NCBI RefSeq assembly: GCF_031202265.1 | Contig: NZ_CP100604.1 | Location: forward strand, 7,546,501-7,610,500 | Length of the DNA: 64,000 nt | Direction: 5' to 3' | Origin: Bradyrhizobium sp. Ash2021 | GTDB taxonomy: Bacteria > Pseudomonadota > Alphaproteobacteria > Rhizobiales > Xanthobacteraceae | Shown here: positions 717-62,360 of the stretch, one piece after another | Numbering within the stretch: position 1 is the stretch's first letter | Layout of the letters: each line of letters opens with the position of its first letter | The notes under the pieces: model-generated | What the model was told of the DNA's origin: nothing | Database searches by the model: none | What the model saw: only the letters and a program-made list of their open reading frames with translations | Position numbers and translations under genes: made by a program

Positions 717-947
717 TCATCTCTCAGCCTCCTTGTGTTCAATGCCGTTACTACGATTTCTAGGGAACTCGCGGACGCCGGCGTGCTTCCTGGGACGCCA
801 GACTGGTTTGAACCAGTGATGATTTCCAGTCTCCTCGATCGCCGTGATCCAGGCACGCTCGAAGGCGCTCTTCGACGTTCTGAAACGTTCAATCGCTTCC
901 GCACATAGCTCGCCCTTCGTCCGTGTTTTCTCGGACGATTCGCTCAT
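717..947 (-). CDS. hypothetical small protein
   Basis: A 76-residue, basic, tryptophan-containing frame (motifs TKGELCAEAIERF and FERAWITAIEETG) that looks like a short helical, DNA-binding-like protein. The ATG at 947 is preferred over the upstream frame start at 1037 because sequence before it lacks protein character, but its ribosome site is weak. It lies between the HiPIP gene and phaC on the same strand. I do not recognise a named family. Confidence 0.4.
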   Translation of the reverse strand: MSESSEKTRTKGELCAEAIERFRTSKSAFERAWITAIEETGNHHWFKPVWRPRKHAGVREFPRNRSNGIEHKEAER

Positions 948-24321: not shown

Positions 24322-24522
24322 GGCGAAGGACGCGGTCGATTCTGGCGGTGGCACGGATGGGATTTTTGCCTCGCCTTATCCGTCGATTGGACACCGGTCA
24401 TGTCTGGTACTGATGTCTCAATAGACGTCGGCTTGCCCGGCCTGCACTTCCGCTTCAACCGTTTCTTATTGCTCTTCCCGCGACGGGAACCGTCCTAGGA
24501 CTCGCTCTTCAATGGTTGCCGG

Positions 24523-33402: not shown

Positions 33403-33561
33403 CTACGGCTCACGCGAAACAGGCTCATCATCCGCAATCGCGCGCCAGCCAGCCCCTTCAAGGTCATCATACTGGCCGTTCTTGAGCGACCAGAGAAATC
33501 CCATCAGGCCGATCAGCCCAAGCATCAGGGCCAGGGGAACGAGGAATACCAGAACTTCCAT
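33403..33561 (-). CDS. ccoS: cbb3 oxidase maturation protein CcoS (FixS)
   Basis: A 52-residue single-span membrane protein: one hydrophobic helix (MEVLVFLVPLALMLGLIGLM) followed by the family signature FLWSLKNGQYDDLEG. It overlaps the ccoI stop by one base (TGATG). CcoS is needed to insert cofactors into cbb3 oxidase, probably together with the CcoI copper pump. It is the last gene of ccoGHIS. Confidence 0.93.
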   Translation of the reverse strand: MEVLVFLVPLALMLGLIGLMGFLWSLKNGQYDDLEGAGWRAIADDEPVSREP

Positions 33562-35753
33562 CAGGATTGCTTCCGGGTGCCGCGGTGCGCCCTAAGGGCG
33601 TTCAATAACACCAGCAGGGACGAGCCCGACATGGCCGCGGCGGCGACCAGTGGAGTTGCCAAGCCGGCAATCGCGAGCGGCACCGCAAGGACGTTGTACC
33701 CTACTGCCAGCCACAAATTCTGTCGCATCAACCGCAGCGCTTTTCGGGAATAGTCGATCGCCTTGACGACGGGAGCCAGGCGGTCGCCGAGAAAGACCAG
33801 ATCGGCGGTAGCCTGACTCAAGTGCGTTGCAGTGACCGGCGACATCGAGACATGCGCCGCGGCCAGCGCCGGCGCATCGTTCATGCCATCCCCGACCATC
33901 ATGACCTTGAAGCCCTGCCGCTTCAGCTCTTCAATACGGGCAATCTTGTCGGCAGGCGTTACGCCGGCCCGCCATTCGTGAATTCCCAATGATTGGGCCG
34001 CGTGCCGCACGGCGGGTTCGCGGTCGCCTGAAAGGATCTCAACCGTAATACCGCATTGCGGAAGGGCAGCAACGGCAGAGGCGGCATCCGGGCGCAGACG
34101 CTGCCGGACGGCGAAGACATGACGTGCATCGCCGCGTCGGAAGGCGACAACCGAAGCTTCGGGATCCTGACAAAGGATGCTGTTTGCGAGATGATCCGCT
34201 CCGCAGAACGATGGTCTGCCCAGTCTGACCTCAACGCCATTCACGAAGCCGCGCACGCCTTGCCCCGGCACCTCTTCCACCCCAGCCAACGGCGTCTTGG
34301 CGTCACTAGCCCTGGCCACAGCGGCTGCGACAGGATGATGGCTGGCAAGAGCAAGTTGCCCGGCCAAATCGAACACATCATCCGGGATTTCAACGGCATT
34401 GGCGACATCGAGCTCGGGCAAGGTCAGCGTGCCCGTCTTGTCGAAGACGACCCTGTCGACTTCGGCAAGCCGTTCGATCGCATCGCCGGAATTAAGCAGC
34501 ACGCCGCCCCGGAACAACGCCCCGGAGACCACGGTTTGCACCGCCGGAATCGCCAGGCCAAGCGCGCATGGGCAGGTGATGATCAGAACCGATATCGCCG
34601 TGATGATCGCGTCATGCCAGGATGCCCCGAACGCCACCCAGCCGATCATCGTCAGGAACGCGGTGACATGCACGACCGGCGCATAGAGCCGCGACGCCCT
34701 GTCGGCCAATTGCACGTACCGAGAGCGCGCCTGAACGGCATTCTCAAGCAGCCGCCCGATCTCCGCCAGCAGGGTGCCTTCGGACGCCGCCGCCACCCGT
34801 ACCCGCAGCGCACCGGAGAGATTGAGCGTGCCGGCATAGACGGCGGTGCCCGGCCCCGCCTTTGCCGGCAAGGTTTCGCCGGTGATCAGGCTCTGATCGA
34901 TCTTGGACTGCCCCTCGATCACGGAGCCATCGACGGCCGACCGTTCACCCGGGCGCAGCAACACGATGTCGCCGGCCTGCACCGCAGCGATCGGCACCTC
35001 GCAGATTTCATCGGCGCCGACGAATTTTGTCGCCGTTTCGGCCTTCAAGGCGGCCAGGTTTCCGGCCACCGCGCGCGTCCGCCTTCGCATGCTCTGATCG
35101 AGATAGCGGCCTGCGACGAGTAAGGTGATGAGCATCAGCGCCGCATCGAAATACGCGTGCTCGGCGTGGTTGATGGTTTCGACCACCGACATGGCCAGCG
35201 CCAGCACAATGCCGATGCTGATTGGAACGTCCATATTGGTGCTTCGCGCGGAAAGCGCCCGGAACGCGGATCTGAAGAACGGTTGGCCGGAATAGGCCGC
35301 GGCCGGCAAGGAAATCAGCGCCGACAGCCAGTGGAAGAAATCGCGCTGCTCAGGGATCATGTCCGTCACATTGCCGGACCACACGGGAACAGACAGCATC
35401 ATCACGTTCATCGCGGCAAAGGCGGCGACCCCGAGGCAGCGCAGGAGAAAGCTCGCTCGTTCCGTCTCCAGCGCTTCGGCGCGAACCGGCTCGAACGGAT
35501 AGGCCTTGTACCCGAGCTCCGCGAGCCGATCGACGAAACGCGTGGGGTTCAGCGCCCCGTCCTTCCATTCCAGCGCGATACGACGGTCGGTCAAATTCAC
35601 GCGCGCCAACGTTACGTCCGGGATGGCGGACAGGCCGCGCTCGATCTTCGACATGCAGCCGGCGCAATTGACCCCCTCAACGGCGAGATCGATATGCGAC
35701 AATCCCGAGCCGATGTCCCTTACGTAATGTGAAAAGTCTCGCGTCGCCTGCAT
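33561..35753 (-). CDS. ccoI: CcoI (FixI) copper-exporting P-type ATPase
   Basis: A 730-residue P1B-ATPase that supplies copper for CuB of the cbb3 oxidase. An N-terminal metal-binding site GVNCAGCM precedes the membrane helices. The channel motif is ITCPCALGLAIP, the phosphorylation site DKTGTLT, the HP motif SHHPVA, and the hinge GDGMNDAPALAAAHV. The gene lies 12 bp after ccoH and overlaps ccoS. Length and motifs are complete. Confidence 0.95.
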   Translation of the reverse strand: MQATRDFSHYVRDIGSGLSHIDLAVEGVNCAGCMSKIERGLSAIPDVTLARVNLTDRRIALEWKDGALNPTRFVDRLAELGYKAYPFEPVRAEALETERASFLLRCLGVAAFAAMNVMMLSVPVWSGNVTDMIPEQRDFFHWLSALISLPAAAYSGQPFFRSAFRALSARSTNMDVPISIGIVLALAMSVVETINHAEHAYFDAALMLITLLVAGRYLDQSMRRRTRAVAGNLAALKAETATKFVGADEICEVPIAAVQAGDIVLLRPGERSAVDGSVIEGQSKIDQSLITGETLPAKAGPGTAVYAGTLNLSGALRVRVAAASEGTLLAEIGRLLENAVQARSRYVQLADRASRLYAPVVHVTAFLTMIGWVAFGASWHDAIITAISVLIITCPCALGLAIPAVQTVVSGALFRGGVLLNSGDAIERLAEVDRVVFDKTGTLTLPELDVANAVEIPDDVFDLAGQLALASHHPVAAAVARASDAKTPLAGVEEVPGQGVRGFVNGVEVRLGRPSFCGADHLANSILCQDPEASVVAFRRGDARHVFAVRQRLRPDAASAVAALPQCGITVEILSGDREPAVRHAAQSLGIHEWRAGVTPADKIARIEELKRQGFKVMMVGDGMNDAPALAAAHVSMSPVTATHLSQATADLVFLGDRLAPVVKAIDYSRKALRLMRQNLWLAVGYNVLAVPLAIAGLATPLVAAAAMSGSSLLVLLNALRAHRGTRKQS

Positions 35754-35765
35754 GATACGGCCTTC

Positions 35766-36263
35766 CTAGTTCAACAAGACGCGGTTCTTCGATAGGAACA
35801 TCCGTTGTCCTGCTGCGGCGCCTTCTAGCACCAGATCCCACTGCCCCGGCGCGATCGCGGGTGCACTTCCGCGATAGATGCCGATCCCTGTTTCGGCGAG
35901 GACAACCGGGAGATCGGCCCGCCGATCGGTCGGCCGTTCGAACCGGCCCTGAAACTTAAGGCCAGACATTGGTCGGCCATTGCTGTCGCGCGCCTCGACC
36001 TCCAGCGTTGCGCCGCCCTGCCCGCTGCGCTGAATGTGTGCGTCGACCTTCCAGTCGCGCGCGTTCTGGTCATGGGCGGCTGCGATTTCCTTCTCATAGG
36101 TCAGGCTCGCACTATAGGCGCTATCGACCTCGGTGCCGGGCAGTGTCTGGATGGCGAGCCTCATCATGATCATGTTGACCCCGATCACGACACCAAAGAA
36201 CGCGACCAGCATCAAAAGCACCTTGCGTCCGGTCAAAGGCTTCGGAGCCTGCGGTCTGCTCAT
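35766..36263 (-). CDS. ccoH: CcoH (FixH) assembly protein
   Basis: A 165-residue membrane-anchored protein with one N-terminal helix (VLLMLVAFFGVVIGVNMIMM), followed by the FixH domain (YEKEIAAAHDQNARDWKVD, GQWDLVLEG). It is required for a late step in cbb3 assembly. It sits between ccoG and ccoI with short gaps. Confidence 0.93.
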   Translation of the reverse strand: MSRPQAPKPLTGRKVLLMLVAFFGVVIGVNMIMMRLAIQTLPGTEVDSAYSASLTYEKEIAAAHDQNARDWKVDAHIQRSGQGGATLEVEARDSNGRPMSGLKFQGRFERPTDRRADLPVVLAETGIGIYRGSAPAIAPGQWDLVLEGAAAGQRMFLSKNRVLLN

Positions 36264-36282
36264 GTGCCCCTCCCATCAACTC

Positions 36283-37746
36283 TCATGGCGTCACGAAGTT
36301 ATCGGTTGTGGAGGCAACCTCACCCAGCCCGATGTCCGTGACCCGAAATCTTATTGGTACCGATTTCTCGGAGTTGTTCTCGGCGGGCGCCGTGACGAGA
36401 ACCCTTAGTTCGGTGGTCTGATCCCGGCCGAGAATGATCGCTGGTCGGTCCGGGGTTACGGAATCAACGCCGACAACATGGATCGTCGCGTTATGCGGGC
36501 CGTCGATGTCGATCGCGATGACGCGGTCGAAGCCACGCTTGTTCAGGAGGCGAACCGTGTAGGCGTTTCGGATTGATCCATCGCTGAGTTTCACCGCCAC
36601 GGGATTGCGGTCGTGCAATACGTTGACGTCGAGCAACGTGCGGGTCAGCAGCGCGTACAGCATGATCGCGCCGACGCCCACGATCATGCATACATAGGTG
36701 ATGGTGCGCGGCCGTACGATGCGATAGATCGGCGGTTTGCCGGCCTGACGCCGATGGATGTTGATATCGTTGTCGTATCCGATCAGACGGGTTTCCCGTC
36801 CGATCTTTGTCATTACGGTATCGCAGGCATCGATGCACAGGCCGCACTGGATGCAGTCGAGTTGTGCGCCATCGCGGATGTCGATTCCGGTCGGACAGAC
36901 GGCGACGCATTGATAGCAGTCGATGCAGTCCCCGACCTGCTCCCCGAGGGCCCGCAATTCGTTCGCTTTCTTCAGCGACGTGCGCTTTTCGCCACGATCG
37001 TATTTGTAGGTGACGTTCAGTGCCCATTCGTCGGTGAGCGCCGCCTGGATACGCGGCCACGGACACATATAGACACAGACCTGCTCGCGCATGAAGCCGG
37101 CGAGCACGTAAGTCGTCGCCGTCAGTATAGCGATCCAGATATAGGCCAGCATCGGCGCCTGGAATGTCGCAAGCTGTTTCACCAGCGTCGGCGCGTCGTT
37201 GAAATAGAGCACCCATGCGCCGCCGGTCCACCATGCGATCAACAGCCAGATCGAATGTTTGAGCGCGAGTTCCGCGACACGCCGCGGCGTAAACGAACCG
37301 CCCGCAACATCTTTTCTCATGCGCTCGCGCCGGTCACCTTCGACGAACCGCTCGACGGCGTAGAACAGATCCGTCCACACGGTTTGCGGGCAGAGGTATC
37401 CGCACCAGATACGGCCTCCCACAGAATTCATCAGAAAGAGAGCGATGGCGGCAAGGATCAGCAGCCCGGTGAAATAGTAGACCTCCTGCGGCCACAGTTC
37501 GATGAAGAAGAAATAGAAACGACTGTTGGGTAAATCGACCAGCACCGCCTGATCTGGCGCCCCGAGTCCGCGATTCCACCGCACGAACGGCAACAGGTAA
37601 TAGACGCCGAGGCAGAACGCCATCAGGCCCCATTTGATTCGGCGGAAGGTTCCGGAAACGCTCTGCGGATAGACTTTCTTCCGAGCCGCATAAAGCGGCC
37701 CGTCGTCTTCAAACTGCAGTTCGATAGGGTTCACGGGCTTGTTCAT
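36283..37746 (-). CDS. ccoG: CcoG (FixG, RdxA) polyferredoxin-like membrane protein
   Basis: A 487-residue membrane protein with several helices and two [4Fe-4S] clusters (CIDCYQCVAVCP, CIQCGLCIDACD). The periplasmic C-terminal Ig-like domain (TVRLLNKRGFDR) is present. Members of this family reduce Cu(II) to Cu(I) for the oxidase. It is the first gene of ccoGHIS, with an FNR/FixK box 57 bp upstream. Confidence 0.95.
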   Translation of the reverse strand: MNKPVNPIELQFEDDGPLYAARKKVYPQSVSGTFRRIKWGLMAFCLGVYYLLPFVRWNRGLGAPDQAVLVDLPNSRFYFFFIELWPQEVYYFTGLLILAAIALFLMNSVGGRIWCGYLCPQTVWTDLFYAVERFVEGDRRERMRKDVAGGSFTPRRVAELALKHSIWLLIAWWTGGAWVLYFNDAPTLVKQLATFQAPMLAYIWIAILTATTYVLAGFMREQVCVYMCPWPRIQAALTDEWALNVTYKYDRGEKRTSLKKANELRALGEQVGDCIDCYQCVAVCPTGIDIRDGAQLDCIQCGLCIDACDTVMTKIGRETRLIGYDNDINIHRRQAGKPPIYRIVRPRTITYVCMIVGVGAIMLYALLTRTLLDVNVLHDRNPVAVKLSDGSIRNAYTVRLLNKRGFDRVIAIDIDGPHNATIHVVGVDSVTPDRPAIILGRDQTTELRVLVTAPAENNSEKSVPIRFRVTDIGLGEVASTTDNFVTP

Positions 37747-37802
37747 CGCTGGGGTTCATCTCGGGCCTGGCGTTGAGTGTAGGCTCACACCCGCAACCGC
37801 AT

Positions 37803-37816
37803 TTGATCCACCTCAA
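37803..37816. promoter_or_regulatory. FNR/FixK box for ccoGHIS
   Basis: TTGATCCACCTCAA, 57 bp before the ccoG start and 30 bp past the ccoP stop. It gives ccoGHIS its own oxygen-controlled promoter, separate from ccoNOQP. Confidence 0.75.
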
Positions 37817-37845
37817 ACTACGCTCACGGTCGCGCCGCCGCCCTG

Positions 37846-38718
37846 TTACTTGCCCCCGCCGAGCGAGTGGACGTAGACCGCCAGCGCCTTGATGGTGGAA
37901 GGATCGAGACGGCCGACCCAGGCCGGCATCACCCCGGCGCGGCCGTTGGTGATCGTCTCGACAAGCGTCGCCTCGTCCGAACCATAGAGCCAGATCTTGT
38001 CGGTGAGATTGGGCGCCCCCAACTCCTGATTTCCCTTGCCGGCGTCGCCATGGCACGCCGTGCAATTATCCGCGAAGATTTTGGCTCCAGCGCTCGCGTC
38101 ATAGCCCGGACTTGTCGGCAGACCCGACAACGACCGGACGTAGTTGGCTACCGTGACGATCTGATCCCTTTTGAGAACTCCTTCCTTGCCGAAGGCAAGC
38201 ATGGCGCTCTCGTGGGTCTTGGCATGCCCCGAACGGGCGCCGTACTGGATCGTCTGCAAGATCTGGTCGAGCGTGCCCCCCCACAACCAGTCGTCATCAT
38301 TCAAATTGGGATAACCCTTGGCGCCGGCCGCGCCACTGCCGTGGCAAGGCGCGCAATTGTCGCCAAACACCGTCTTGCCGCGGGCGCGGGCAAGCGCAAG
38401 CAGGGCCGGGTCCTTCTCGATCTCCGCCAGTGGCGCCGCACCGAGCGCGACCATCTTGTCGCCGCGGATCTTTTCCAGATTGGCAAGCTCCACGGCCACC
38501 TCCGCACGGGAGGAATAGTGCAATATGCCTGTCGTGTGGCTCCGTAGCATCGGCCACGCCGGATAAACGATCCAGTAGCCGATCGCCCAGACGATGGTGA
38601 TGTAAAAAGTGATGACCCACCAGCGCGGCAGCGGCGTGTTTAGTTCCTTGATGCCGTCCCACTGATGTCCCGTGGTCGCCTTACCGGAGACGTGATCGAT
38701 GTCGTTGTGCTCGGTCAT
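37846..38718 (-). CDS. ccoP: cbb3 oxidase diheme subunit CcoP
   Basis: A 290-residue membrane-anchored cytochrome c subunit. One helix near residues 33-55 (WWVITFYITIVWAIGYWIVYP) is followed by two heme motifs, CAPCHG and CTACHG. It passes electrons from soluble cytochromes to CcoO. The gene starts 7 bp after the ccoQ stop. Confidence 0.96.
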   Translation of the reverse strand: MTEHNDIDHVSGKATTGHQWDGIKELNTPLPRWWVITFYITIVWAIGYWIVYPAWPMLRSHTTGILHYSSRAEVAVELANLEKIRGDKMVALGAAPLAEIEKDPALLALARARGKTVFGDNCAPCHGSGAAGAKGYPNLNDDDWLWGGTLDQILQTIQYGARSGHAKTHESAMLAFGKEGVLKRDQIVTVANYVRSLSGLPTSPGYDASAGAKIFADNCTACHGDAGKGNQELGAPNLTDKIWLYGSDEATLVETITNGRAGVMPAWVGRLDPSTIKALAVYVHSLGGGK

Positions 38719-38725
38719 GATCCCC

Positions 38726-38890
38726 TCAATCCTCCCGCAGCGGCATTTTTGCAGCTTCGTCGAAGGCTAACCGGTTACGCGGCCACAGCGCGTACGTCAC
38801 GATGGCGATAAAAATTCCAACAAAGGTCGGCGTCCAAAACGTCGTGACGAAGTCCGATGAAAAATTTTGGACGGTGAGGATTGCTTTCAT
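38726..38890 (-). CDS. ccoQ: cbb3 oxidase small subunit CcoQ
   Basis: A 54-residue single-helix protein (PTFVGIFIAIVTYALWPRNR) with the typical FDEAAKMPL tail. It stabilises the CcoP-core interaction. It lies between ccoO (12 bp) and ccoP (7 bp). Confidence 0.93.
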   Translation of the reverse strand: MKAILTVQNFSSDFVTTFWTPTFVGIFIAIVTYALWPRNRLAFDEAAKMPLRED

Positions 38891-38902
38891 CGTTCTGCCT
38901 TC

Positions 38903-39637
38903 TCAGCGGAGATTTGCTTTTTCGTTGTAAAGCTTGAAGTCGACCAGCGTGCCGAGCATCTGCAAGTAGGCGATCAGCGCGTCCATTTCGGTGGGAGCGC
39001 CCGGCTTGCCGTCGAAATTCCGCACAACCGCCTTCGGATACCGCTTGGCAAACGCATCCGTGCCGGCGTTGTCGGGATCGGCCTGTGCCTTGAGGTCGGC
39101 GACGGCATTGGCAATCTGGTCGTCCGAATAGGGGACGCCGACGGCGCGGCTGGTGCGCAGATGGTCTGCGATGGTTGCGGTATCGACCTCCGTCTGAGCC
39201 AGGAAAGCATATCCGGGCATCACCGACTGCGGCACGATCGCGCGTGGATTGGTCAGATGCGTCACATGCCATTCATCGGAATATTTTGCGCCGACGCGCG
39301 CAAGGTCGGGACCGGTACGCTTCGACCCCCACTGGAACGGATGGTCATACATGCTCTCGGCTGCGAGCGAGTAGTGGCCATAGCGTTCGACTTCGTCCCG
39401 CAACGGCCGGATCATCTGCGAGTGGCAGAGATAGCACCCTTCGCGGACATAGATGTTGCGACCGGTGAGTTCGAGCGGAGTGTACGGCCTGATGCCGTCG
39501 ACCACCTCGATCGTGCTCTTGAGGTAAAACAGCGGGGTGATCTCGACGAGACCGCCGATCGCAATGACCGCGAAGATTCCCCCAACCAGGACGATCGAAT
39601 TCTTCTCGAAGATCTGATGCCTGCTCCAGAAAGACAT
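38903..39637 (-). CDS. ccoO: cbb3 oxidase monoheme subunit CcoO
   Basis: A 244-residue membrane-anchored cytochrome c with an N-terminal helix and the motif [12 protein letters not shown]. Conserved YGHYSLA and [15 protein letters not shown] segments are present. It transfers electrons to the heme b of CcoN. It follows ccoN by 11 bp. Confidence 0.96.
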
Positions 39638-39648
39638 TTAATGGTTCC

Positions 39649-41301
39649 TCATTCCGCCGGCTGCAGGGCGACGGGCGACTGCACTTCCGCCTCGCCGCCG
39701 ACGCGCACCGTCATCCAGAGATTAAAGGCCATGATCAACGCGCCGATCAGGAACAAAGCTCCACCGGCTGCGCGAATGATGTAGAACGGGTGCATCGCTT
39801 CCACGGTTTCGATGAAGGAATATTCGAGGAAGCCGAGCGAGGTATAGGCGCGCCACATCAGGCCTTGCAGGATACCCGAGACCCACATCGCGGAGATGTA
39901 GAGCACGATGCCGATGGTGGCGATCCAGAAATGCCAGTTGACGAGCTTGAGGCTGTAAAGCCCCTTGCGATCCCATAGCCAGGGAAACAGGCAATACAGC
40001 GCGCCGAACGAGACGAATCCGACCCAGCCCAGCGCACCCGAATGCACGTGACCGATGGTCCAGTCCGTGTAGTGGCTGAGCGAGTTCACCACCTTGATCG
40101 ACATCAGCGGGCCTTCGAACGTGGCCATACCGTAAAACGCGACCGAGACGACGAGCATGCGGAGCACCGGATCGGTACGAAGCTTGTCCCAGGCGCCCGA
40201 CAGCGTCATGAGGCCGTTGATCATGCCACCCCAGGACGGCATCCAAAGCATGATCGAGAAGGTCATGCCGAGCGTCTGCGCCCAGTCAGGCAGCGCCGTG
40301 TAATGCAGATGGTGCGGTCCGGCCCAGATATAGAGAAAGATGATCGCCCAGAAATGGATGATCGACAGCCGGTAGGAATAGACCGGCCGCTCCGCGCGCT
40401 TTGGAATGAAGTAATACATGATGGCGAGGAAACCGGCGGTCAGGAAGAACCCGACGGCATTGTGCCCGTACCACCACTGGAACATCGCATCCTGAACACC
40501 GCCCCAGGCGATGTATGACTTCGAGCCGAACACCGATACCGGCAGGGCGGGATTATTACCCAGATGAAGCACGGCGATGGTGACGATGAAGGCCAGATAG
40601 AACCAGTTCGCGACGAAGATGTGCGGTTCTTTGCGTTTGACGATGGTCATCAGGAAGACCAGCAGATAGGTCACCCACACGATCGTCAGCCACAGATCGG
40701 CATACCATTCCGGCTCGGCGTATTCCTTGGATTGGGTGACACCGAGCAGATAGCCCGTGCCCGCGATCAGGATGAAGAAGTTATAGCCGATGACCACGAA
40801 CCACGGCGCGAGATCGCCCGCGAGGCGAACCCGGCAGGTTTTCTGCACCACATAGAACGACGTTGCGATCAGCACGTTGCCGCCGAATGCGAAGATCACG
40901 GCCGACGTGTGCAGCGGCCGCAGCCGTCCAAAGCTCGTCCATGGCAGGTCGAAATTGAGCGCCGGCCATGCAAGTTGCGAGGCGATCAACAGGCCGACGG
41001 TAAATCCGGCGATGCCCCAGAACATCCCCATGACCGCCGAAAATTTGACGGGGCCCATAGTGTAGTTCGGGCGGCCATTGATTTCCTGTGGCGGCAAGGA
41101 TGCAGGGCGATCGAAGTAGCGGTTTACAATCGCAAAGACGGCCCACAGGCTGGCGGCACATGCCAGCGATGCGTGAAAGGCAAACGCGGTGTCCAGTGCC
41201 TTAGCTGCGGCGAAGAGGCAAACAAAAGCGCCCACGGCAAAGACCAGCGCCAGACCGGCTTCGCCGTGGGTCATCGATTTTGCAGTTTGAGATTCGTTCA
41301 T
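39649..41301 (-). CDS. ccoN: cbb3 oxidase catalytic subunit CcoN
   Basis: A 550-residue, 12-helix heme-copper oxidase subunit of C type. The ligand histidines lie in segments such as [43 protein letters not shown] and [14 protein letters not shown]. With CcoO and CcoP it forms the high-affinity terminal oxidase for microaerobic respiration. An FNR/FixK box lies 60 bp before the ATG at 41301. It is the first gene of ccoNOQP. Confidence 0.97.
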
Positions 41302-41470: not shown

Positions 41471-41932
41471 TCAGCAACATGAGGGGCCGATCAGGAGCGA
41501 CGCCTGCGTTTCCTCAGCCAAATGCTCCCGGTCAAGCGCCTTCAAGGTCTGTGCGTTCGGACAATAGTCCAACCGATCCGAATGCGCCGCTGGATGCTCG
41601 AACTCGCGGGCGCATCGCTTGGTCTCGGAACACAATCCGCAAACCCGCTGCAAATCGCGGAGCACCTCGGGGTGCTGCCTTTTCACCAGCTCCGGAGAAA
41701 GCCCAAATTCCTTTAGGCGCTTTTCCAAAAGTTCGCCCGAGAGGTAGCCTCTGCTCGAAAGCAAATAAAGTTCCGGGGGCGACAGGTTAAGATCCCGCGC
41801 AATCTCTTCGAACTCCGCGCGGTTGATGCCGCGCAGCTCGTTGGCATAGGCGAACCTGGAGACAGCGGCCTTTAACCGGCCGATCAAGCCGCCGGCGCGC
41901 GGCAATTTTCCCGTAACGTTGGAAGCAATCAT
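41471..41932 (-). CDS. DUF6455-like cysteine-motif protein
   Basis: A 153-residue soluble protein with RDLNLSPPELYLLSS followed by a cysteine block, CGLCSETKRCAREF ... YCPNAQTLKAL. The same layout occurs in the protein at 55413-55829, so the window has two paralogs. The spacing C-x2-C-x5-C plus a distant YC suggests a metal or iron-sulfur site, but this is unproven. An FNR/FixK box lies 58 bp upstream. It sits between hemN and ccoN, all on the minus strand. Confidence 0.82.
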   Translation of the reverse strand: MIASNVTGKLPRAGGLIGRLKAAVSRFAYANELRGINRAEFEEIARDLNLSPPELYLLSSRGYLSGELLEKRLKEFGLSPELVKRQHPEVLRDLQRVCGLCSETKRCAREFEHPAAHSDRLDYCPNAQTLKALDREHLAEETQASLLIGPSCC

Positions 41933-54652: not shown

Positions 54653-54666
54653 TTGATCTATCGCAA
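54653..54666. promoter_or_regulatory. FNR/FixK box for hemerythrin gene
   Basis: TTGATCTATCGCAA fits TTGA-N6-GCAA, the FixK2-type variant, 58 bp before the start at 54725. Confidence 0.62.
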
Positions 54667-54724
54667 TGTCTTACGACGCGACATCTGCGACTGTTACAAG
54701 AAATCTATCTTCAGGGAGGGCGCA

Positions 54725-55297
54725 ATGGTCATTGAAATCCTGCGCCAGGAACATCGCAACATTGAGAAGTTGCTCCTCGTTCTCGAGCGCGAGCTGAGCG
54801 TCTTCGCTCGTGGGGACCGCCCTGACTACGAGGTAGTCCACGCGGTTATCGCTTATTTCCAGGTCTATCCCGACGCCTACCATCATCCGACGGAGGATAT
54901 GGTATTCGAGAAGCTGAAGGTGCGTGATCCCGCCGCGACCGCGAATATCGGCGATCTCGCGGCCGAGCACCGGAGGGGCGCCGAAGGCTTGCGCCGGGTC
55001 GCGCGGGCGGTCGAGAGTGTACTAGCTGATCAGGAACTCCTGCGACAGAACATCAACGACATCATTCGCGACTTCATCGAGCAGGAACGGCGCCATATCG
55101 CCATGGAAGAGCGAGATTTCTTTCCGGCCGCAGTCAAGGCGCTACAACCTCAGGATTGGGCGGAGATCGCCTCGAGATTGACTGATCAGAGGAACCCGCT
55201 TTTCAGTGAGGTTGTCGAAGAGAGGTTCGAGGTCGTGCGAAGGCATATCTTGCAGCTGGAGCAGGAGGCTGAGGCGGAACGATCGGCGCATTGCTGA
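54725..55297 (+). CDS. hemerythrin-domain protein
   Basis: A 190-residue helical protein with hemerythrin ligand motifs: QEHRNIEKL, DAYHHPTEDMVFEKL, AEHRRG and ERRHIAMEERDFFP. The set can bind a di-iron centre that takes up O2 or NO, or store iron. The ATG at 54725 has GGGAGGG upstream. The FNR/FixK box suggests use under oxygen limitation. Confidence 0.9.
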   Translation: MVIEILRQEHRNIEKLLLVLERELSVFARGDRPDYEVVHAVIAYFQVYPDAYHHPTEDMVFEKLKVRDPAATANIGDLAAEHRRGAEGLRRVARAVESVLADQELLRQNINDIIRDFIEQERRHIAMEERDFFPAAVKALQPQDWAEIASRLTDQRNPLFSEVVEERFEVVRRHILQLEQEAEAERSAHC

Positions 55298-55967: not shown

Positions 55968-56567
55968 TTACCTGACAAAGCTGAGGTAGGAAGCCAGCGC
56001 CTCAATTTCGTTCGGGCCCAATTGCCGCGCGACCAGGGGCATCGGAGAGGCCGGATCCGAATGGTATCCTTGGCCCCACTGCTGGAGCCGCGCCTTCAGG
56101 TAGAAATAAGCAAGCCCCCCAAGGCGAGGAATTTCGCGCACGCCCTCGGCGTTCGGGCCATGACAGGCATAGCAGGATGCAACGTTGGCTTCCGGAATTC
56201 CCTCCATATAAATCGTTCTGCCCGCGGCCGCGAGATTCCTGTCGCCGTCATTGGCGGGTTTAGGCGAAATCGTTGCAAAGTAGGCCGCGAGTTCGCGGGC
56301 GGTGCGAGCATCAAGCGCGGCCACGGCGCCCCACATGTATTGCTTCGAAAAAGGGTTGTCGCGCGCGTGCTCGCGGAAGCTTCTGATCTGGCTTTCGGTA
56401 TAGGCCGGACGCTGACCGGCCAGCCTCGGCGCGACCATGTAACCCTGTCCCGATGTTCCGTGGCACCAGGTGCAGTTGCGGATGCTGGCGTCTCCATCCC
56501 ACGCCATCGCGGGAGCGATTGACGCGACAATTGCCAAGACCGCTGCTTTCAATCCGGTGCGCTTCAT
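55968..56567 (-). CDS. diheme cytochrome c (c4-like) 1
   Basis: A 199-residue exported diheme cytochrome. A Sec signal (MKRTGLKAAVLAIVASIAPAMA) is followed by CTWCHG and CYACHG, each with the c4-type pattern PRLAGQRPAY or IPRLGGLAYFY. The start at 56567 is preferred because the signal begins there. It is the last gene of the minus-strand cluster 59.7-56.0 kb, 52 bp after the next cytochrome gene. Confidence 0.92.
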   Translation of the reverse strand: MKRTGLKAAVLAIVASIAPAMAWDGDASIRNCTWCHGTSGQGYMVAPRLAGQRPAYTESQIRSFREHARDNPFSKQYMWGAVAALDARTARELAAYFATISPKPANDGDRNLAAAGRTIYMEGIPEANVASCYACHGPNAEGVREIPRLGGLAYFYLKARLQQWGQGYHSDPASPMPLVARQLGPNEIEALASYLSFVR

Positions 56568-56619
56568 GACCTCAAGCTCAATTCGATTGACCGACCCGGC
56601 ATATGCGGGATCCAAACTC

Positions 56620-57294
56620 TCATTGAAGGTAGCTGACATAGGCCGCGACGGCTTCAATTTGTGATCGCGTCAGATTATGCGCTGTCGGCGCCATGATCGC
56701 GGAGGTGTCGACTGCCGATCCTTGGCCTCGTACCTTCGTCCAACCCGTGAGCTGTCCGACGGAGTACTCATAGAGCTGGCCCGCCAGCCGCGGAATTTCG
56801 TTCTGACCCTTGCCTTCGGACCCATGACAGGCCGCGCAGGCCGGCACATTGGCATCGGGAAGCCCGTCCTCGAAGATCCTCTTGCCCAACGCCAATGAAC
56901 CCCTTGGCGCGCCTCCGATCGGCTTGGGATCGAGATTTCTGAAATGTGTCGCCAAGGCCGAGACCATAGAGGGGCTCAGCACGTGGGCGACGTTGGCCAT
57001 GATGGGGTTCGTGCGCCGGCGCTCGATGAAAGCCCGCAACTGATTCTCCATATATTGCGGTTGCTGTCCTGCCAGTCGCGGCATTGGAAAATATCCACGA
57101 TACCCCTGCGCTGACAACCCGTGGCAGGTTTTGCAATATTCCAGTTTCGCCTCCAGGCCGCCCTGCCTCGCGACGATCACTCTGTCCTCCGCGCGACCCA
57201 CGACTGAAAAACCGACAGCCAGCAGCACTGCGGGCCACACGAACCGCAAGCCGGTGACCCCTAAGATACGGCGCTTGCGCCTGTCAGGTGACAT
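56620..57294 (-). CDS. diheme cytochrome c (c4-like) 2
   Basis: A 224-residue exported diheme cytochrome with CKTCHG and CAACHG, the pattern PMPRLAGQQPQYMENQL, and EIPRLAGQLYEY. It closely resembles the cytochrome at 60029-60679 (same YCKTCHGL and RLAGQQP blocks). It lies 35 bp after the outer-membrane protein gene. Confidence 0.93.
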   Translation of the reverse strand: MSPDRRKRRILGVTGLRFVWPAVLLAVGFSVVGRAEDRVIVARQGGLEAKLEYCKTCHGLSAQGYRGYFPMPRLAGQQPQYMENQLRAFIERRRTNPIMANVAHVLSPSMVSALATHFRNLDPKPIGGAPRGSLALGKRIFEDGLPDANVPACAACHGSEGKGQNEIPRLAGQLYEYSVGQLTGWTKVRGQGSAVDTSAIMAPTAHNLTRSQIEAVAAYVSYLQ

Positions 57295-57329
57295 CCGCGC
57301 TGTCCTCCTCCCCTAGCATAGTTCGACCG

Positions 57330-58103
57330 TCACCAGCCGGCTGCCCAGACGTGAAAGTTGAGCCCGACTTTCACGACCTGGATGTTTTGCTTGACGTCGA
57401 CCAGGCCCGAGAAAACGTTGACCGGATCGGACATCAAGACGTTGCCATGTCCGAATTGATAGTAGTCGTATTCGACGAAGGCGGACCAATGATGCGTGAA
57501 AGCCCAGTCCACGCCGCCACCGACGGTCCACCCCACGCGATTGTCCAACCCCTCAAAGGCAAACGGGGTACCGCCGAATGAACCGGTGACATCGTATTTA
57601 TCTCCGGCGAGCGCGACGCCCCCCTTGGCGTACAGCAACACATTGTCGATGGCGTAGCCCAGGCGAACAGTCAGGCTCGGCAGAAAGTCGGTATTGGCCT
57701 TCACCAGGGCCGTGTCGGGGGGGCTGAGCGGCAGCCCGACGGTTCTCGTGTTCCTCATGGTCGAACCGGACGCGGCACCCTCGATGCCGACGACCCAGGA
57801 GGGAGCGAACTGGTAGTCGCAGCCGATCTGCCCGCCAATCACCACACCGGTCGGCGATGGACTGACCGTTGTGACGTCCACAGTAGAGCCAGCGCCCAGA
57901 AACGAATCCTGCACCAGCTGCACCGGATCGGTAATGTCCTTGCGTCCAAAACCGCCGCCGACGTGGCCGCCAACGTAGCAACCCGTCCAGCTGAAGCGCG
58001 CTGCGAACGGCGTCTCCGCCTTGAGCGGCATGTCGGCGGCGAGCACGGGTCCCGCGACGGCCATTGCAAGCGCTGCGGCATTTGCCAAAAGCAGTTTTCT
58101 CAT
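57330..58103 (-). CDS. Omp25/Omp31-like outer-membrane beta-barrel
   Basis: A 257-residue protein with a Sec signal (MRKLLLANAAALAMAVAGPVLAAD), then FSWTGCYVGGHVGGGFG and a series of alternating aromatic strands (LTVRLGYAIDNVLLYAKGGVA; HHWSAFVEYDYYQFG) ending in VKVGLNFHVW. This is the common rhizobial outer-membrane barrel. Its place between a heme-porin gene and two cytochrome genes is unusual. Confidence 0.9.
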   Translation of the reverse strand: MRKLLLANAAALAMAVAGPVLAADMPLKAETPFAARFSWTGCYVGGHVGGGFGRKDITDPVQLVQDSFLGAGSTVDVTTVSPSPTGVVIGGQIGCDYQFAPSWVVGIEGAASGSTMRNTRTVGLPLSPPDTALVKANTDFLPSLTVRLGYAIDNVLLYAKGGVALAGDKYDVTGSFGGTPFAFEGLDNRVGWTVGGGVDWAFTHHWSAFVEYDYYQFGHGNVLMSDPVNVFSGLVDVKQNIQVVKVGLNFHVWAAGW

Positions 58104-58133
58104 CTGACGATCTCCGTCTGCGGGCGCGCCCGC

Positions 58134-59678
58134 CTACATGGCAAACCAGGCGTGGAGGAAGAGCGTGTTGTTGTCGTGGGCCCCGACCGTGGTGCCGTTG
58201 AACTTGTTGTAATAGGTGTATTGCAGGCCAATGCGGGCATTGAACCATGGCCAGCCGAACGACTTGCTGAGCCCGAACGGGATGTAGGCGATTTCAGCCT
58301 GGAAGCCGTCGCTGTTCGGGGTCATGGCCAACCCGGTGACGGGATCGGTCCCGAACAGGGTCGCATCGGCGGTGCCCCAGATATTGAAATATTGTCCGGT
58401 GAAAACGATCCGGTTGTCGCCGCCATAAGCGAACGAGGCTTGCAGCTTCAGGCTGTTCAGGAGGTTGGTCGGATTGGACGAAGCAAAGTTGGCGAAGCTC
58501 GAATCGAGCCGCTGAAACTCGCGAATATAACTGCCGCGCAACGTCAGCCAGTAATTGTCGCCTTGATACTGGTATTGCGTATCAAAGCCGATGTCCGTGA
58601 ACTTATCCGATAGCGGAAACGTTCCGGTCGAAAAACTCGCGAAGCTTGTATCGAGCCAAGGATGCACATCGAAGTACATTCCGAAGGTGCCGACCATCAG
58701 CGAGTGCCTGCCCCAATGCGGCTCGAGGGCGACGCGCCAATACGGCGCCACGCTGCCAAACAGACCGGGCGCGCCGAACGGGTCAGTGCCCAGCGCGTTC
58801 TGCTGGCTGAACCCGAGCGTCTTGTAACCCGTGACTTCGAGATAGAGCAGATCGTTGATCAAGGTGTAGGCGCCGACGCCACCGACATGCGCGGCGAAAG
58901 CGCCCTCGATCATCGTCTTGCTTGAGGGGGTCGGTGCAAGCGTCGATACCGCATAGGGGAATGACCAGGCCGGCGTAGTGTTCCACAAATCCTGGACGGT
59001 CGGATTGTTGTTGGCCGTGATGCCGTAGACAAGGTCGAGCGGGCCGATGCTCGCCGTCCTGGCAAAACGAACATCGGTATTGTCCCAGGTCCAGGTGTGT
59101 CCGAACGGATCCCCGAATCCGCCGGCAGGCGGCGCGTTATAGGTGACCTGCGCGAACGCGCCGATATCGTTGGTGATGGCTCCGCCCCAGAACGCGCTGA
59201 ATGGCGAGAGCACGGTGTTGTCGTTTGGGCTGTAGGGGTCCGTCGGCGGGGGCAGTGGCGCTTGGGTGTGGGTGAAGCCGACAATCGCCATCATCGAGAG
59301 CGGCGGCACGTATTCCTTGTTACCATCACTCGCCGGAGGTTCAATCGCCTTGGCATAGCCGCGCAATTTGTCGAGTTCGGCGCGTGCGTCGCGTCCGGCG
59401 TTGGATGAGAACGGCGTCGTGCGAAACTCGCCGCCGCCAGGGGTGTATCCGAGCAGCTTGAACCGTCTTCCGTAAGGGGTAAGCGCGGGGAAATCGGTGT
59501 GGCAGGTACCGCAGGGCTGTCCAGTCTGACGTGCGAAGCTCGGCAGCGCTTGTGCTGGCGAAGTAGAGCCAATTGTCATGCAGCCCGCCAGCACTGCAGC
59601 AAGCACGAGCGCAGCGAATAGCCTGCCATTCCCGGAGAGTCGACTAGAACGGTACCCCCGCATCGCGCGCTGTCCCAT
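58134..59678 (-). CDS. porin-like outer-membrane protein with N-terminal monoheme motif
   Basis: About 514 residues. After a signal with a lipobox-like LAGC and an AQA site comes PSFARQTGQPCGTCHTDFPALTPYGRRFKL, with one CXXCH heme motif. The remaining 430 residues have beta-barrel character (alternating aromatics; final strand NTLFLHAWFAM). This layout resembles cytochrome-porin fusions such as Cyc2, used to move electrons across the outer membrane, but I judge this by layout and memory of the FARQTG-CxxCH motif, not alignment. The start could also be the ATG at 59663. It heads the cluster with an Omp25-like barrel and two diheme cytochromes. Confidence 0.82.
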   Translation of the reverse strand: MGQRAMRGYRSSRLSGNGRLFAALVLAAVLAGCMTIGSTSPAQALPSFARQTGQPCGTCHTDFPALTPYGRRFKLLGYTPGGGEFRTTPFSSNAGRDARAELDKLRGYAKAIEPPASDGNKEYVPPLSMMAIVGFTHTQAPLPPPTDPYSPNDNTVLSPFSAFWGGAITNDIGAFAQVTYNAPPAGGFGDPFGHTWTWDNTDVRFARTASIGPLDLVYGITANNNPTVQDLWNTTPAWSFPYAVSTLAPTPSSKTMIEGAFAAHVGGVGAYTLINDLLYLEVTGYKTLGFSQQNALGTDPFGAPGLFGSVAPYWRVALEPHWGRHSLMVGTFGMYFDVHPWLDTSFASFSTGTFPLSDKFTDIGFDTQYQYQGDNYWLTLRGSYIREFQRLDSSFANFASSNPTNLLNSLKLQASFAYGGDNRIVFTGQYFNIWGTADATLFGTDPVTGLAMTPNSDGFQAEIAYIPFGLSKSFGWPWFNARIGLQYTYYNKFNGTTVGAHDNNTLFLHAWFAM

Positions 59679-59940
59679 CGCGGTGCGCTCACGGCAAACA
59701 GGAATCGAATTGCCAGGCGCGCTCGCGAACAATAGGCCAAGAGTGGAGAGCTTGGCCAAGCGACATTCGCTGGGTCGAATCCGATTTCAACGACAGCGAG
59801 ACATTTTAGCAACTATAGGTTGCAGTCACAACACTAAAGCGTGCGGCGAAACGGTGCGTTTCGTCACGGGGCAACACCACTAATACAACGAGAATCCCTC
59901 GTCGCGTATCGGCAAAAATACGGGATTCGTCCGGCAGTCT

Positions 59941-59954
59941 TTGAGCTGGATCAA
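59941..59954. promoter_or_regulatory. FNR/FixK box for third diheme cytochrome
   Basis: TTGAGCTGGATCAA, 74 bp before the start at 60029. Identical to the box at 41990. It lies in the 350-bp gap between divergent cytochrome genes; the rest of the gap shows nothing else I can name. Confidence 0.78.
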
Positions 59955-60028
59955 CCGCCGCCGAAAAAATCAGGCTGGACCAAAGTCCCCGGCGCGGCGT
60001 AGCTTGAGTTGATCAAAGGCAGGGTTCC

Positions 60029-60679
60029 ATGAGGTTACGATCGGTATCGCCGACAGCAGCCCTTGCCGCCGTCCTCTGCATTGTCTCCGCGCTGGCGGAT
60101 GCGGAAGACAAGGCGGCGTCCGCCGTCTCTGGGCAAGAACTCAAGGCCAAGACCGACTATTGCAAGACCTGCCACGGCTTGGCGGCGCAAGGCTTTCGCG
60201 GGTCTTTTCCGATGCCGCGGCTGGCGGGACAGCAGCCGGAGTATCTCCAGAATCAATTGCAAGCGTTTATCGAGCACCGGCGCACAAACCCGGTCATGTT
60301 CAATGTCGCGCATGTTCTGAAGCCATCCATGGTCTCGGCCTTGGCCACATACTTCAAGGACCTCAATCCCAAGCCGTTGGGAGGCGCCACAAAGGAGCTC
60401 GTGCCGGAGGGCAAGAAGATTTACGAAGAAGGCGTTCCGAGCGCCAACGTTCCTCCCTGCGCCTCCTGTCACGGGCCGGATGCGAAGGGGGCCGATGCAT
60501 TTCCTCGCCTGGCAGGGCAGCTTCATGACTACATCTTCAGGAAGCTGACGAACTGGGAAAAAGAAAGAGGGCAGAACAGGGATCAGCCCGATACGTCGGC
60601 GATTATGCAGCCGATCGCCCACGATCTTACTGAAGCGCAAATCAAAGCCGTCGCCGCGTATGTCAGCCAATTGGAGTGA
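60029..60679 (+). CDS. diheme cytochrome c (c4-like) 3
   Basis: A 216-residue exported diheme cytochrome (signal, then CKTCHGLAAQGFRG and CASCHGPDAKG, with PMPRLAGQQPEYLQNQL). It is a close paralog of the protein at 56620-57294 but lies on the opposite strand, divergent from the porin-heme gene, and has its own FNR/FixK box. A role as periplasmic carrier between outer-membrane heme and the cbb3 oxidase is inferred. Confidence 0.94.
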   Translation: MRLRSVSPTAALAAVLCIVSALADAEDKAASAVSGQELKAKTDYCKTCHGLAAQGFRGSFPMPRLAGQQPEYLQNQLQAFIEHRRTNPVMFNVAHVLKPSMVSALATYFKDLNPKPLGGATKELVPEGKKIYEEGVPSANVPPCASCHGPDAKGADAFPRLAGQLHDYIFRKLTNWEKERGQNRDQPDTSAIMQPIAHDLTEAQIKAVAAYVSQLE

Positions 60680-60791: not shown

Positions 60792-62360
60792 CAGACTGTG
60801 TAAAAACGCGGATGTTGAGGTTTGAGGCGCAGCCGGCTGGCTCATGAGCCGAGCCTATGCTCGGATCGCTTCTATTAGTCCGCCAACGCCGAGAATGCTC
60901 ATGACCCGTTTCATGTTGTAGGCCAGGACGTGTAGCGCCATTTCGGTACCGACGTGCTTGAGCGTTTTCATCTGGAAGTGCGTCGATCCCATCCACGACT
61001 TTATCGTACCGAATGGATGCTCGACGGTCTGGCGGCGAAGGCGCATTTTCGCCGGGTTTCGATCGAGCCTCGCTTGCACGGCCTCAAGGACGGCTTCGTG
61101 CTCCCAACGTGAGATCCGTCGTTCTTTGCCTGTCGTGCACTGACCCTTCAGCGCGCAGCCCTGGCACGCGTTGGTCCAATAGCGGCGCAGTGTCTTGCCA
61201 TCCTCTTCGTTGGTGTAGTGATAGACTAGCTGCTCACCGGCGGGACAAAGATAAACGTCGTCCGCCGCGACGTAGACGAAGTCCTGCTTGCCGAAGCGCC
61301 CTTTGACGTTGAGGCCCGACGTTATCGGCTTCGGCAGATAGACAGTGACGCCGGCTTGCTCACAGGCAACAATTTCCTCGCCGCTATAGTACCCGCGATC
61401 GGCTACAGCCGTCTCGGAACCAATCGCTGCGCGTGCCTGCTCGGACATGCGGGATAGCTGGCTCCGGTCAGACCCAACGTTGGTCACCTCATGGGTAACA
61501 ATGAGATGATGCTTGGTGTCGACAGCACTTTGAACATTGTACCCGACCATCCCGCTGCCTCGGCCACTCGTGGCCATCGAGCGAGCATCGGGGTCGGTCA
61601 GCGATATCTGTTTGTCCTCGGTCTGCATCATCAGAGTGTTCAGACCGTTTAGGCGTTGTATCTCCTGGCGCAGCGTCGCAATCTTCTCGTTGAGCCGGGT
61701 GATCTTGGCCTCCGGTACTGCTTCCCCCTGGCGGTCGGCGCTGTCGAGCTGCGAGAGATACCGGGCGATGCTCTCGTCAATCTGCGCCAGCCGCCGCTGC
61801 ATCTTGGCCTGGGTGAAGTTCCGGTCCCGAGTGTTGACGGCCTTGAACTTGCTGCCGTCGATCGCAACGCTCGCTTCGCTGAACAGCTCAAGGCGTCGGC
61901 ACAGCACCACGAACTCACGGCAAACCTTGCGGATGGCCTCGCCGTTATCCTTCCGGAAGTCGGCTATCGTCTTGAAGTCTGGCATTAAGCGTCCGGTCAG
62001 CCAAACCAACTCAATGTTGCGTTGGCATTCCCGTTCCAGGCGCCGGCTCGATTGCACTCGATTGAGGTATCCGTAGACGTAAATCTTCAACAATGTCGCC
62101 GGGTGGTAGGCCGGCCTTCCTGTCGCCTCCGGCTCAACACCGCCAAAGCCCAGCTTGGCCAGATCAAGCTCATCGACAAAGACATCGATCGCTCGGACCG
62201 GATTATCCTCGGCTAAATAGTCTTCCAGCCGCTCGGGAAACAACGTGCTCTGGCTGCGGTCATCGCCAACGACAAAGCGCGTCATCGAATCCTCCAACCG
62301 AATCGCTGGAGAATCATATCATTGAGGGTGTTTTCATTGAGGGTGTTTTCACACAGTCTG
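60792..62360. mobile_element. IS1182-family insertion sequence with 4-bp target duplication
   Basis: A 1569-bp element bounded by CAGACTGTGTAAAAAC on the left and the complement of CAGACTGTGTGAAAAC on the right. GGTC flanks it on both sides (60788-60791, 62361-62364). Removing it and one GGTC joins ...CGCATATGGGTCAAACTGCG..., an apparently continuous intergenic sequence. Confidence 0.88.
60855..62285 (-). CDS. IS1182-family transposase
   Basis: A 476-residue transposase, full length: N-terminal LFPERLEDYLAEDNPVRAIDVF, DDE-core segments FKTIADFRKDN, VAIDGSKFKAVN and VADRGYYSGEEI, a CQGCALKGQC zinc-like motif, and C-terminal VEHPFGTIKSWMG. The ATG at 62285 follows GGAGG. No frameshift is seen, so it may be active, unlike the other IS1182-like copy. 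Confidence 0.95.
   Translation of the reverse strand: MTRFVVGDDRSQSTLFPERLEDYLAEDNPVRAIDVFVDELDLAKLGFGGVEPEATGRPAYHPATLLKIYVYGYLNRVQSSRRLERECQRNIELVWLTGRLMPDFKTIADFRKDNGEAIRKVCREFVVLCRRLELFSEASVAIDGSKFKAVNTRDRNFTQAKMQRRLAQIDESIARYLSQLDSADRQGEAVPEAKITRLNEKIATLRQEIQRLNGLNTLMMQTEDKQISLTDPDARSMATSGRGSGMVGYNVQSAVDTKHHLIVTHEVTNVGSDRSQLSRMSEQARAAIGSETAVADRGYYSGEEIVACEQAGVTVYLPKPITSGLNVKGRFGKQDFVYVAADDVYLCPAGEQLVYHYTNEEDGKTLRRYWTNACQGCALKGQCTTGKERRISRWEHEAVLEAVQARLDRNPAKMRLRRQTVEHPFGTIKSWMGSTHFQMKTLKHVGTEMALHVLAYNMKRVMSILGVGGLIEAIRA

What the first reader, a model, noticed from the sequence alone, without database searches (positions are those of the whole stretch)
55968..60679. Outer-membrane heme-porin clustered with an Omp25-like barrel and three diheme cytochromes
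Four minus-strand genes in tight order (porin with N-terminal CGTCH, Omp25-like barrel, two c4-like diheme cytochromes) face a third, FNR-boxed diheme cytochrome. The layout suggests a route for electrons across the outer membrane to periplasmic carriers and then to the cbb3 oxidase or bc1 complex, for example for metal oxidation or electron uptake. Such a combination is not a standard named system that I know.
Basis: partly seen in the sequence, partly recalled or inferred. Interest (0 to 1): 0.78.

Follow-up and report, generated by a model that had tools for sequence, protein, structure and literature searches.

The report
Cyc2 iron-oxidation module in Bradyrhizobium
A soil bacterium of the Bradyrhizobium kind carries the genes for a known type of outer-membrane protein (Cyc2) thought to take electrons from dissolved iron, packed with its electron carriers and a second small barrel; the kind is known, but this family-specific layout and its repeated copies make it a good place to test the idea.

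Summary
In detail: a porin with one N-terminal heme-c site, a small barrel and two diheme cytochromes in a row, and a third, divergent diheme behind an FNR-type box. The porin is not a new system. It meets the published sequence criteria for Cyc2, AlphaFold2 gives 16 barrel strands, and its profile matches Mariprofundus Cyc2 proteins (E 5e-24). All three dihemes match PDB 1H1O best (by recall the Acidithiobacillus Cyc1, the classical Cyc2 partner). A Bradyrhizobium Cyc2 cluster with three periplasmic cytochromes and a HiPIP is already in print (PMC5566968). What the tools add: the layout is kept in 24 loci of the family; in 195 genomes of the genus the same 18 hold a close Cyc2 and dihA; the small barrel follows cyc2 in 29 of 36 loci of this family and in none of 103 others; the dihemes are old paralogues; and this genome holds three module copies, two sharing an identical 2,822-bp tract, as after gene conversion. 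Most likely function: microoxic Fe(II) oxidation feeding cbb3 oxidase and bc1. The electron donor is inferred; the small barrel's role is unknown.

The parts
58134..59678 (-). cyc2: outer-membrane fused cytochrome-porin, 514 aa, signal peptide probably ending ...PAQA, ALPSFARQT-GQP-CGTCH-TDF-PAL motif, 16-strand barrel
   Evidence: no Pfam match over 0.67 E-value significance and no NCBIfam match
57330..58103 (-). Omp25/OmpA-like small outer-membrane barrel, usual companion of cyc2 in this family
   Evidence: PF13505 51.3 bits against 28.7; AlphaFold2 best model 8 strands, pLDDT 82, but the five models range from 82 to 30; downstream of cyc2 in 29 of 139 loci
56620..57294 (-). diheme cytochrome c (dihB), c4/Cyc1-like
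   Evidence: best PDB match 1H1O E 4.7e-27
55968..56567 (-). diheme cytochrome c (dihA), c4/Cyc1-like, 199 aa from ATG (most searches used 55968-56570, one residue longer; one search used the 199-aa form)
   Evidence: best PDB match 1H1O E 1.9e-25; same 18 of 195 genomes as close cyc2
60029..60679 (+). divergent diheme cytochrome c (dihC), c4/Cyc1-like
   Evidence: best PDB match 1H1O E 1.6e-29
59941..59954 (.). FNR/FixK-type box TTGAGCTGGATCAA, between cyc2 and dihC, about 80 bp before dihC
54653..55297 (+). hemerythrin-domain protein, beside all three module copies of this genome
   Evidence: PF01814
55320..55829 (+). DUF6455-like protein, beside all three module copies of this genome
   Evidence: PF20056 20.3 bits, below the cut-off of 23.7
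56969..59790 (.). 2,822-bp tract 100% identical to module copy B 29.5 kb away (dihA and dihC about 93%): presumed gene-conversion tract

Best explanation
This is a Cyc2-type electron-uptake module. The porin is a fused cytochrome-porin of the Cyc2 family: a 16-strand outer-membrane barrel whose N-terminal domain carries one heme c. A soluble donor, most likely Fe(II), gives an electron at the outer membrane; the Cyc2 heme passes it to periplasmic diheme c4/Cyc1-like carriers (dihA, dihB, dihC), which deliver it to the cbb3 oxidase (operon at 33561-41301) for energy, and part of it to bc1 for reverse flow to NADH and CO2 fixation (RuBisCO is present). The three carriers are old paralogues, so I infer a division of labour like Cyc1 and CycA1. 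In this strain expression is probably tied to low oxygen by FixK/FNR. Shown by computation: membership, predicted fold, conserved layout, co-occurrence. Inferred: donor, electron path, partner oxidase, regulation. Unknown: what the small barrel does. My estimates: outer-membrane conduit to dihemes 0.9; Fe(II) as main physiological donor 0.6.
For: Published Cyc2 motif and PxL met. Profile match to Mariprofundus-type Cyc2s over 362 columns, probability 99.6, E 5.4e-24. 16-strand model, pLDDT 83, pTM 0.81; porins, OprP among them, are the listed PDB matches. All three dihemes hit 1H1O best. A Cyc1-like diheme lies within 1.5 kb of cyc2 in 27 of 80 named-collection loci, 26 directly downstream, against 1 in 394 kb of far flank; all 27 carry proteobacterial titles. 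In 195 genomes of the genus, cyc2 at 67% identity or more (split over two contigs in G132) and dihA at 64% or more are in the same 18. Copy C starts 1.6 kb after a ccoO-P-G-H-fixI run. ccoN, ccoO, ccoP, ccoG and an FnrL/FixK-like regulator (below NCBIfam cut-offs) are in the window. RuBisCO in the genome.
Against: No experiment. The Cyc2 authors hold much of Clusters 2 and 3 functionally unverified (PMC8406198 section 13), and Cyc2 is not consistently present among Bradyrhizobium Fe(II) oxidizers (PMC5566968). The FNR-type box is in only 8 of 24 modules. Within the fetched flanks (about 7 kb) cbb3 genes lie near the module only in this genome. BLAST against two Mariprofundus Cyc2 proteins finds only the cytochrome part, my full-length HMM does not reach two Mariprofundaceae proteins at E 1e-20, and the profile alignment, at 18% identity, rests mostly on the N-terminus. 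Chromosomal A. ferrooxidans Cyc2 was not obtained, so the Cyc2 cluster is unassigned. The absence of MtrB/PioB had no positive control: none of its 14 control genomes passed the cut-off.
Confidence: 0.7

Rival explanations
1. The same conduit works with another partner: it exports electrons (Fe(III) or humic reduction) or takes them from other soluble reductants or an electrode, and Fe(II) is incidental.
For: Isoforms of Cyc2 and Cyc1 are said to make up the ferric iron reduction pathway of acidithiobacilli (PMC10715153, passage). Many Cyc2 carriers are not known Fe(II) oxidizers (PMC5566968 section 12). The patchy spread in the genus (18 of 195) fits a niche trait.
Against: Three Cyc2 representatives tested biochemically oxidize Fe(II) (PMC8406198 section 13). 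cbb3 genes by copy C and in this window point to an oxygen-linked end.
Confidence: 0.2
2. Cyc2 here serves detoxification or sensing of Fe(II) in flooded or microoxic soil and nodules rather than energy gain: iron is oxidized outside the cell to keep it out of the periplasm.
For: FNR-type boxes and a hemerythrin-domain neighbour suggest a microoxic response in this strain.
Against: Three conserved diheme carriers and cbb3 genes nearby are more than a detoxification sink needs.
Confidence: 0.1
3. An ordinary porin with a chance CxxCH, next to unrelated cytochrome genes.
For: No significant Pfam or NCBIfam match for the protein.
Against: The heme site and flanks are invariant in 86 aligned homologues; conserved layout and co-occurrence.
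Confidence: 0.02

Closest known systems
Cyc2, fused cytochrome-porin iron oxidase (Mariprofundus ferrooxydans PV-1, Acidithiobacillus ferrooxidans)
   Same: single N-terminal CxxCH with the AxPxFAR[QK][TY] and PxL motifs, 16-strand porin, profile homology to Mariprofundus-type proteins
   Different: the barrel has no BLAST-level similarity to two Mariprofundus proteins; a stretch of partly low model confidence (residues 86-116) follows the cytochrome domain; cluster not assigned
cyc2-cyc1 start of the rus operon of Acidithiobacillus (PMC10654088, passages)
   Same: cyc2 linked to c4-type diheme cytochromes whose best PDB match is 1H1O
   Different: no rusticyanin match at E 1e-3 in this genome; no aa3 oxidase genes in the module; three dihemes; a second barrel between cyc2 and the dihemes
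Bradyrhizobium Cyc2 cluster of a pyrite-oxidizing enrichment (Percak-Dennett et al. 2017, as told in PMC5566968 section 12)
   Same: Cyc2 clustered with three periplasmic cytochromes c, including Cyc1 and CycA1 homologues
   Different: there a HiPIP is in the cluster; here the only HiPIP found in the region searched is 54 kb away (338-607); the passage names no second barrel
MtoAB/PioAB porin-multiheme complexes
   Same: outer-membrane electron conduit idea
   Different: one fused monoheme protein instead of a sheath around a multiheme cytochrome; no MtrB/PioB match in the protein or genome (no positive control)

Membership tests
Cyc2 | single CxxCH heme-c site near the N-terminus | tested here: met
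   CGTCH at residues 56-60, the only one
Cyc2 | AxPxFAR[Q/K][T/Y] motif upstream of CxxCH | tested here: met
   ALPSFARQT, residues 44-52 (against the definition); three residues lie between it and CxxCH
Cyc2 | PxL shortly after CxxCH | tested here: met
   P64-A-L66; both invariant in 86 homologues
Cyc2 | at least 365 aa | tested here: met
   514 aa
Cyc2 | 16-strand outer-membrane barrel | tested here: met
   16 strands of 8 residues or more at 127-513 in the AlphaFold2 model, pLDDT 83; prediction only
Cyc2 | homology to proteins from known Fe(II) oxidizers | tested here: met
   hhalign of A2 with 28 Mariprofundus-type sequences: probability 99.6, E 5.4e-24; which row, if any, is the tested AKN78226 was not checked
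Cyc2 | FeGenie Cyc2 HMM score and cluster 1, 2 or 3 | not testable with these tools
   HMMs and A. ferrooxidans / Leptospirillum references were not obtained
Cyc2 | Fe(II) oxidase activity | not testable with these tools
   needs protein
Cyc1 / cytochrome c4 (diheme) | two CxxCH, about 200 aa, closest to c4 structures | tested here: met
   all three; 1H1O best, chains named cytochrome c4 among the next; that 1H1O is A. ferrooxidans Cyc1 is recalled
MtrB/MtoB/PioB | PF11854 match | tested here: not met
   no match in the porin; none in the genome (no control genome over the cut-off)
Omp25/OmpA-like small barrels | PF13505, 8 strands | tested here: met
   51.3 bits against 28.7; 8 strands in the best model, one of them broken, with poor agreement among the five models; orthology to any named Omp25 not tested

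The most novel reading that the evidence does not exclude
In this family Cyc2 works as one half of a two-barrel outer-membrane unit: the small barrel encoded directly after it (29 of 36 family loci, none of 103 others) is a dedicated partner, kept even in two loci where the periplasmic carrier is a HiPIP instead of dihemes (L094, L096), and needed for Cyc2 assembly, heme-site orientation or donor access; and three specialised diheme carriers sort the electrons between cbb3 oxidase, bc1 and another sink.
Probability: 0.2. Interest if true: 0.6.

Novelty: new member of a known kind. Interest (0 to 1): 0.4.

Why it matters
Whether the many Cyc2 homologues outside known iron oxidizers oxidize iron is an open question (PMC8406198 section 13). 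Bradyrhizobium grows readily and can be mutated (recalled), so a compact, conserved module in about a tenth of the species sampled (18 of 195), with module-free relatives as natural controls, makes that question testable and could add iron as an energy source for a common soil genus. The family-only second barrel and the three-carrier set are new handles on how Cyc2 connects to the periplasm.

Tried and rejected
MtoB/PioB membership: no match (the latter without a positive control). A solved relative of the porin: none by sequence or profile. Strict FNR control of the module as a family trait: rejected, 8 of 24 (intervals set by hand). Module always beside cbb3: rejected within the flanks fetched. 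Small barrel obligate in the family: not quite; 6 of 36 family cyc2 loci lack it (L052-L055, L093, L103; mostly a distant Cyc2 branch) and L089 has a truncated one. Recent triplication of the dihemes in this genome: rejected; in a tree of 75 selected dihemes (only 12 of the 27 adjacent ones) dihA separates with 100/98 support and dihB+dihC with 100/99, inside one family clade (98/98), but dihC against dihB is weak (76/81), some distant rows are long branches and the bootstrap had not settled. Copies A, B and C as one recent amplification: not favoured; A and B pair for all three dihemes, and C pairs with G053 for dihC (99/96) and dihA (90/84) in that tree, but DNA identities are mixed: for cyc2, omp25 and dihA, A is slightly closer to G053 than C is. 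Getting chromosomal A. ferrooxidans Cyc2 failed: the one genome-contig scan returned the best 80 of at least 582 loci without it, and a rusticyanin search of 398 genomes found none over the cut-off. The Foldseek and VIA-align lists show porins only and do not test the cytochrome domain. HiPIP regex hits were mostly spurious; four were kept by eye as queries. Percak-Dennett 2017 was not read; it is known here only through PMC5566968. Papers seen: PMC8406198 outline, sections 5, 12, 13 and passages; PMC5566968 section 12 and passages; PMC10654088 outline and passages; PMC7029218, PMC10715153, PMC12442345 passages; all others as search listings only. Searches that could have shown a Cyc2-Omp25 pairing in print: (8 of 65 papers listed; none of these 8 holds both words) and, less directly; figures and supplements could not be read.
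Full report
Observation. Genome search places the window at G000:C1:7546501-7610500 of a 9.7-Mb genome. The porin ORF from ATG 59678 gives 514 aa with one CxxCH. Pfam gives only an insignificant lipoprotein-site match (E 0.67), NCBIfam none, and no PDB chain matches it by sequence or by an 86-sequence profile.

What the cytochromes are. All three have two heme sites and hit PDB 1H1O best (E 1.6e-29, 4.7e-27, 1.9e-25); chains named cytochrome c4 follow. I recall 1H1O as the diheme c4 of Acidithiobacillus ferrooxidans (Cyc1/CYC41); the output says only cytochrome c-552. A tree of 75 selected dihemes puts the family's sets in one clade (98/98) apart from the Cyc1-like proteins of other cyc2 loci; dihA is separate (100/98), dihB with dihC form the other branch (100/99), and dihC against dihB is weak; the bootstrap had not settled. 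The set of three is thus older than this genome and has been kept.

How constant the layout is. Of 40 fetched cyc2 loci, 22 have cyc2-omp25-dihB-dihA colinear with a divergent dihC; 3 contig-cut loci show four genes; 1 has all five with dihC in the operon; 14, with more distant cyc2, lack the module. Window copies A and B make 24. In 195 genomes of the genus, own genome included, 23 have any cyc2 match and 18 one of 67% identity or more; dihA at 64% or more is in the same 18 and, at E 1e-20, in no other, one further genome having a 36% match. Cyc2 is scarcer around: 16 of 149 family, 8 of 297 order and 9 of 289 class genomes match, these counts including the own genome and short N-terminal matches. 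In 80 loci of the named collection, 27 have a Cyc1-like diheme within 1.5 kb, 26 of them directly downstream, against one in 394 kb of far flank; by title all 27 are Proteobacteria, though the 80 span several phyla and are the best 80 of at least 582. The Omp25-like barrel follows cyc2 directly in 29 of 139 cyc2 loci, with 2 far matches in 794 kb (3 further loci had no cyc2 by that profile). All 29 are among the 36 loci of the window's family; 6 of the other 7 lack it and L089 has a truncated one. Two of the 29, L094 and L096, have a HiPIP and no diheme. HiPIP genes lie near cyc2 or dihC in 16 of 140 long loci.

Copies in this genome. Three modules exist. A (window) and B, 29.5 kb further on, are about 93% identical in dihA and dihC but share a 2,822-bp run without a difference (56969-59790) over part of dihB and all of omp25 and cyc2. 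At a uniform 7% divergence such a run has a chance near 10^-89. Gene conversion is the plain reading; an assembly or polishing artefact is not excluded. C, at 5.02 Mb, is 84% identical in cyc2 DNA and begins 1.6 kb after a ccoO-P-G-H-fixI run. In the diheme tree C pairs with another genome (G053) for dihC and dihA, but whole-gene DNA identities do not agree on this. All three copies have the hemerythrin and DUF6455-like neighbours.

Surroundings. The window holds ccoN, ccoO, ccoP, ccoG and a copper-type ATPase (33561-41301), HemN and an FnrL/FixK-like regulator whose matches are below the curated cut-offs, 17 FNR-type boxes against 1.5 expected, and a HiPIP at 329-904. The genome has RuBisCO and no MtrB/PioB match (no positive control). 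A box with at most one mismatch between cyc2 and dihC is present in 8 of 24 modules against 0.64 expected, so low-oxygen control is a trait of some members only.

Mechanism. Best reading: Fe(II) or another soluble donor reduces the Cyc2 heme; diheme carriers take the electron to cbb3 oxidase and, for reverse flow, bc1. Family membership, predicted fold and gene linkage are shown by computation. Donor, direction, partner oxidase and regulation are inferred. The heme-in-barrel geometry was not tested; the model has no heme. The small barrel's model is 8-stranded but its five models disagree in confidence (82 to 30), and I have no evidence for its task beyond linkage.

Against the reading. The Cyc2 authors hold the function of many homologues unverified; He et al. 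find Cyc2 inconsistent among Bradyrhizobium Fe(II) oxidizers; cbb3 linkage is seen only in this genome within the flanks fetched.

Known or new. Cyc2 with a mono- or diheme neighbour is known (PMC10715153, passage), as is a Bradyrhizobium Cyc2 cluster with three periplasmic cytochromes and a HiPIP (PMC5566968 section 12). The second barrel as the family's usual companion of cyc2, the retained three-paralogue set and the converted copies are additions that I did not see in the passages read. I therefore call it a new member of a known kind.

Noticed in passing
window 56969-59790 and G000:C1 copy B, 29.5 kb downstream: 2,822-bp identical tract between two module copies whose dihA and dihC are about 93% identical; looks like gene conversion centred on omp25 and cyc2.
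   Followed up: partly
window 329-904 (-): HiPIP (PF01355, 22.5 bits against 22), 71% identical to the HiPIP next to the module in L036; possibly a displaced partner of Cyc2.
   Followed up: partly
window 1-64000: 17 FNR/FixK-type boxes with at most one mismatch against 1.5 expected: the window looks like a microoxic regulon island with cbb3, HemN, an FnrL/FixK-like regulator and a NosP-like protein (the last two below NCBIfam cut-offs).
   Followed up: no
window 60855-62297 and 28893-29846: IS1182-family transposase directly after dihC, and a shorter IS1182-like piece, below the cut-off, upstream; possible cause of rearrangement around the module.
   Followed up: no
window 24503-25119 and about 10 kb beyond the window end: IS30-type transposase region with an inverted 95% copy between module copies A and B.
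   Followed up: no
window 41471-41932 (-): a second DUF6455-like protein (19.6 bits, below the cut-off), just upstream of ccoN; such genes thus sit by both the oxidase operon and the Cyc2 module.
   Followed up: no
L093, L094, L096-L099, L102, L161: alphaproteobacterial cyc2 loci with one or two HiPIP genes beside cyc2 and no diheme ORF: carriers seem exchangeable.
   Followed up: partly
Omp25-like protein 57330-58103, residues C42 and C95: two cysteines invariant in 19 homologues, perhaps a disulphide in the barrel.
   Followed up: no
plasmid records CP084173.1 and NC_009469.1: a plasmid record labelled Acidithiobacillus ferrooxidans holds a relative at 31.4% with the same figures as an Acidiphilium cryptum plasmid; the label may be wrong; not fetched.
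   Followed up: no
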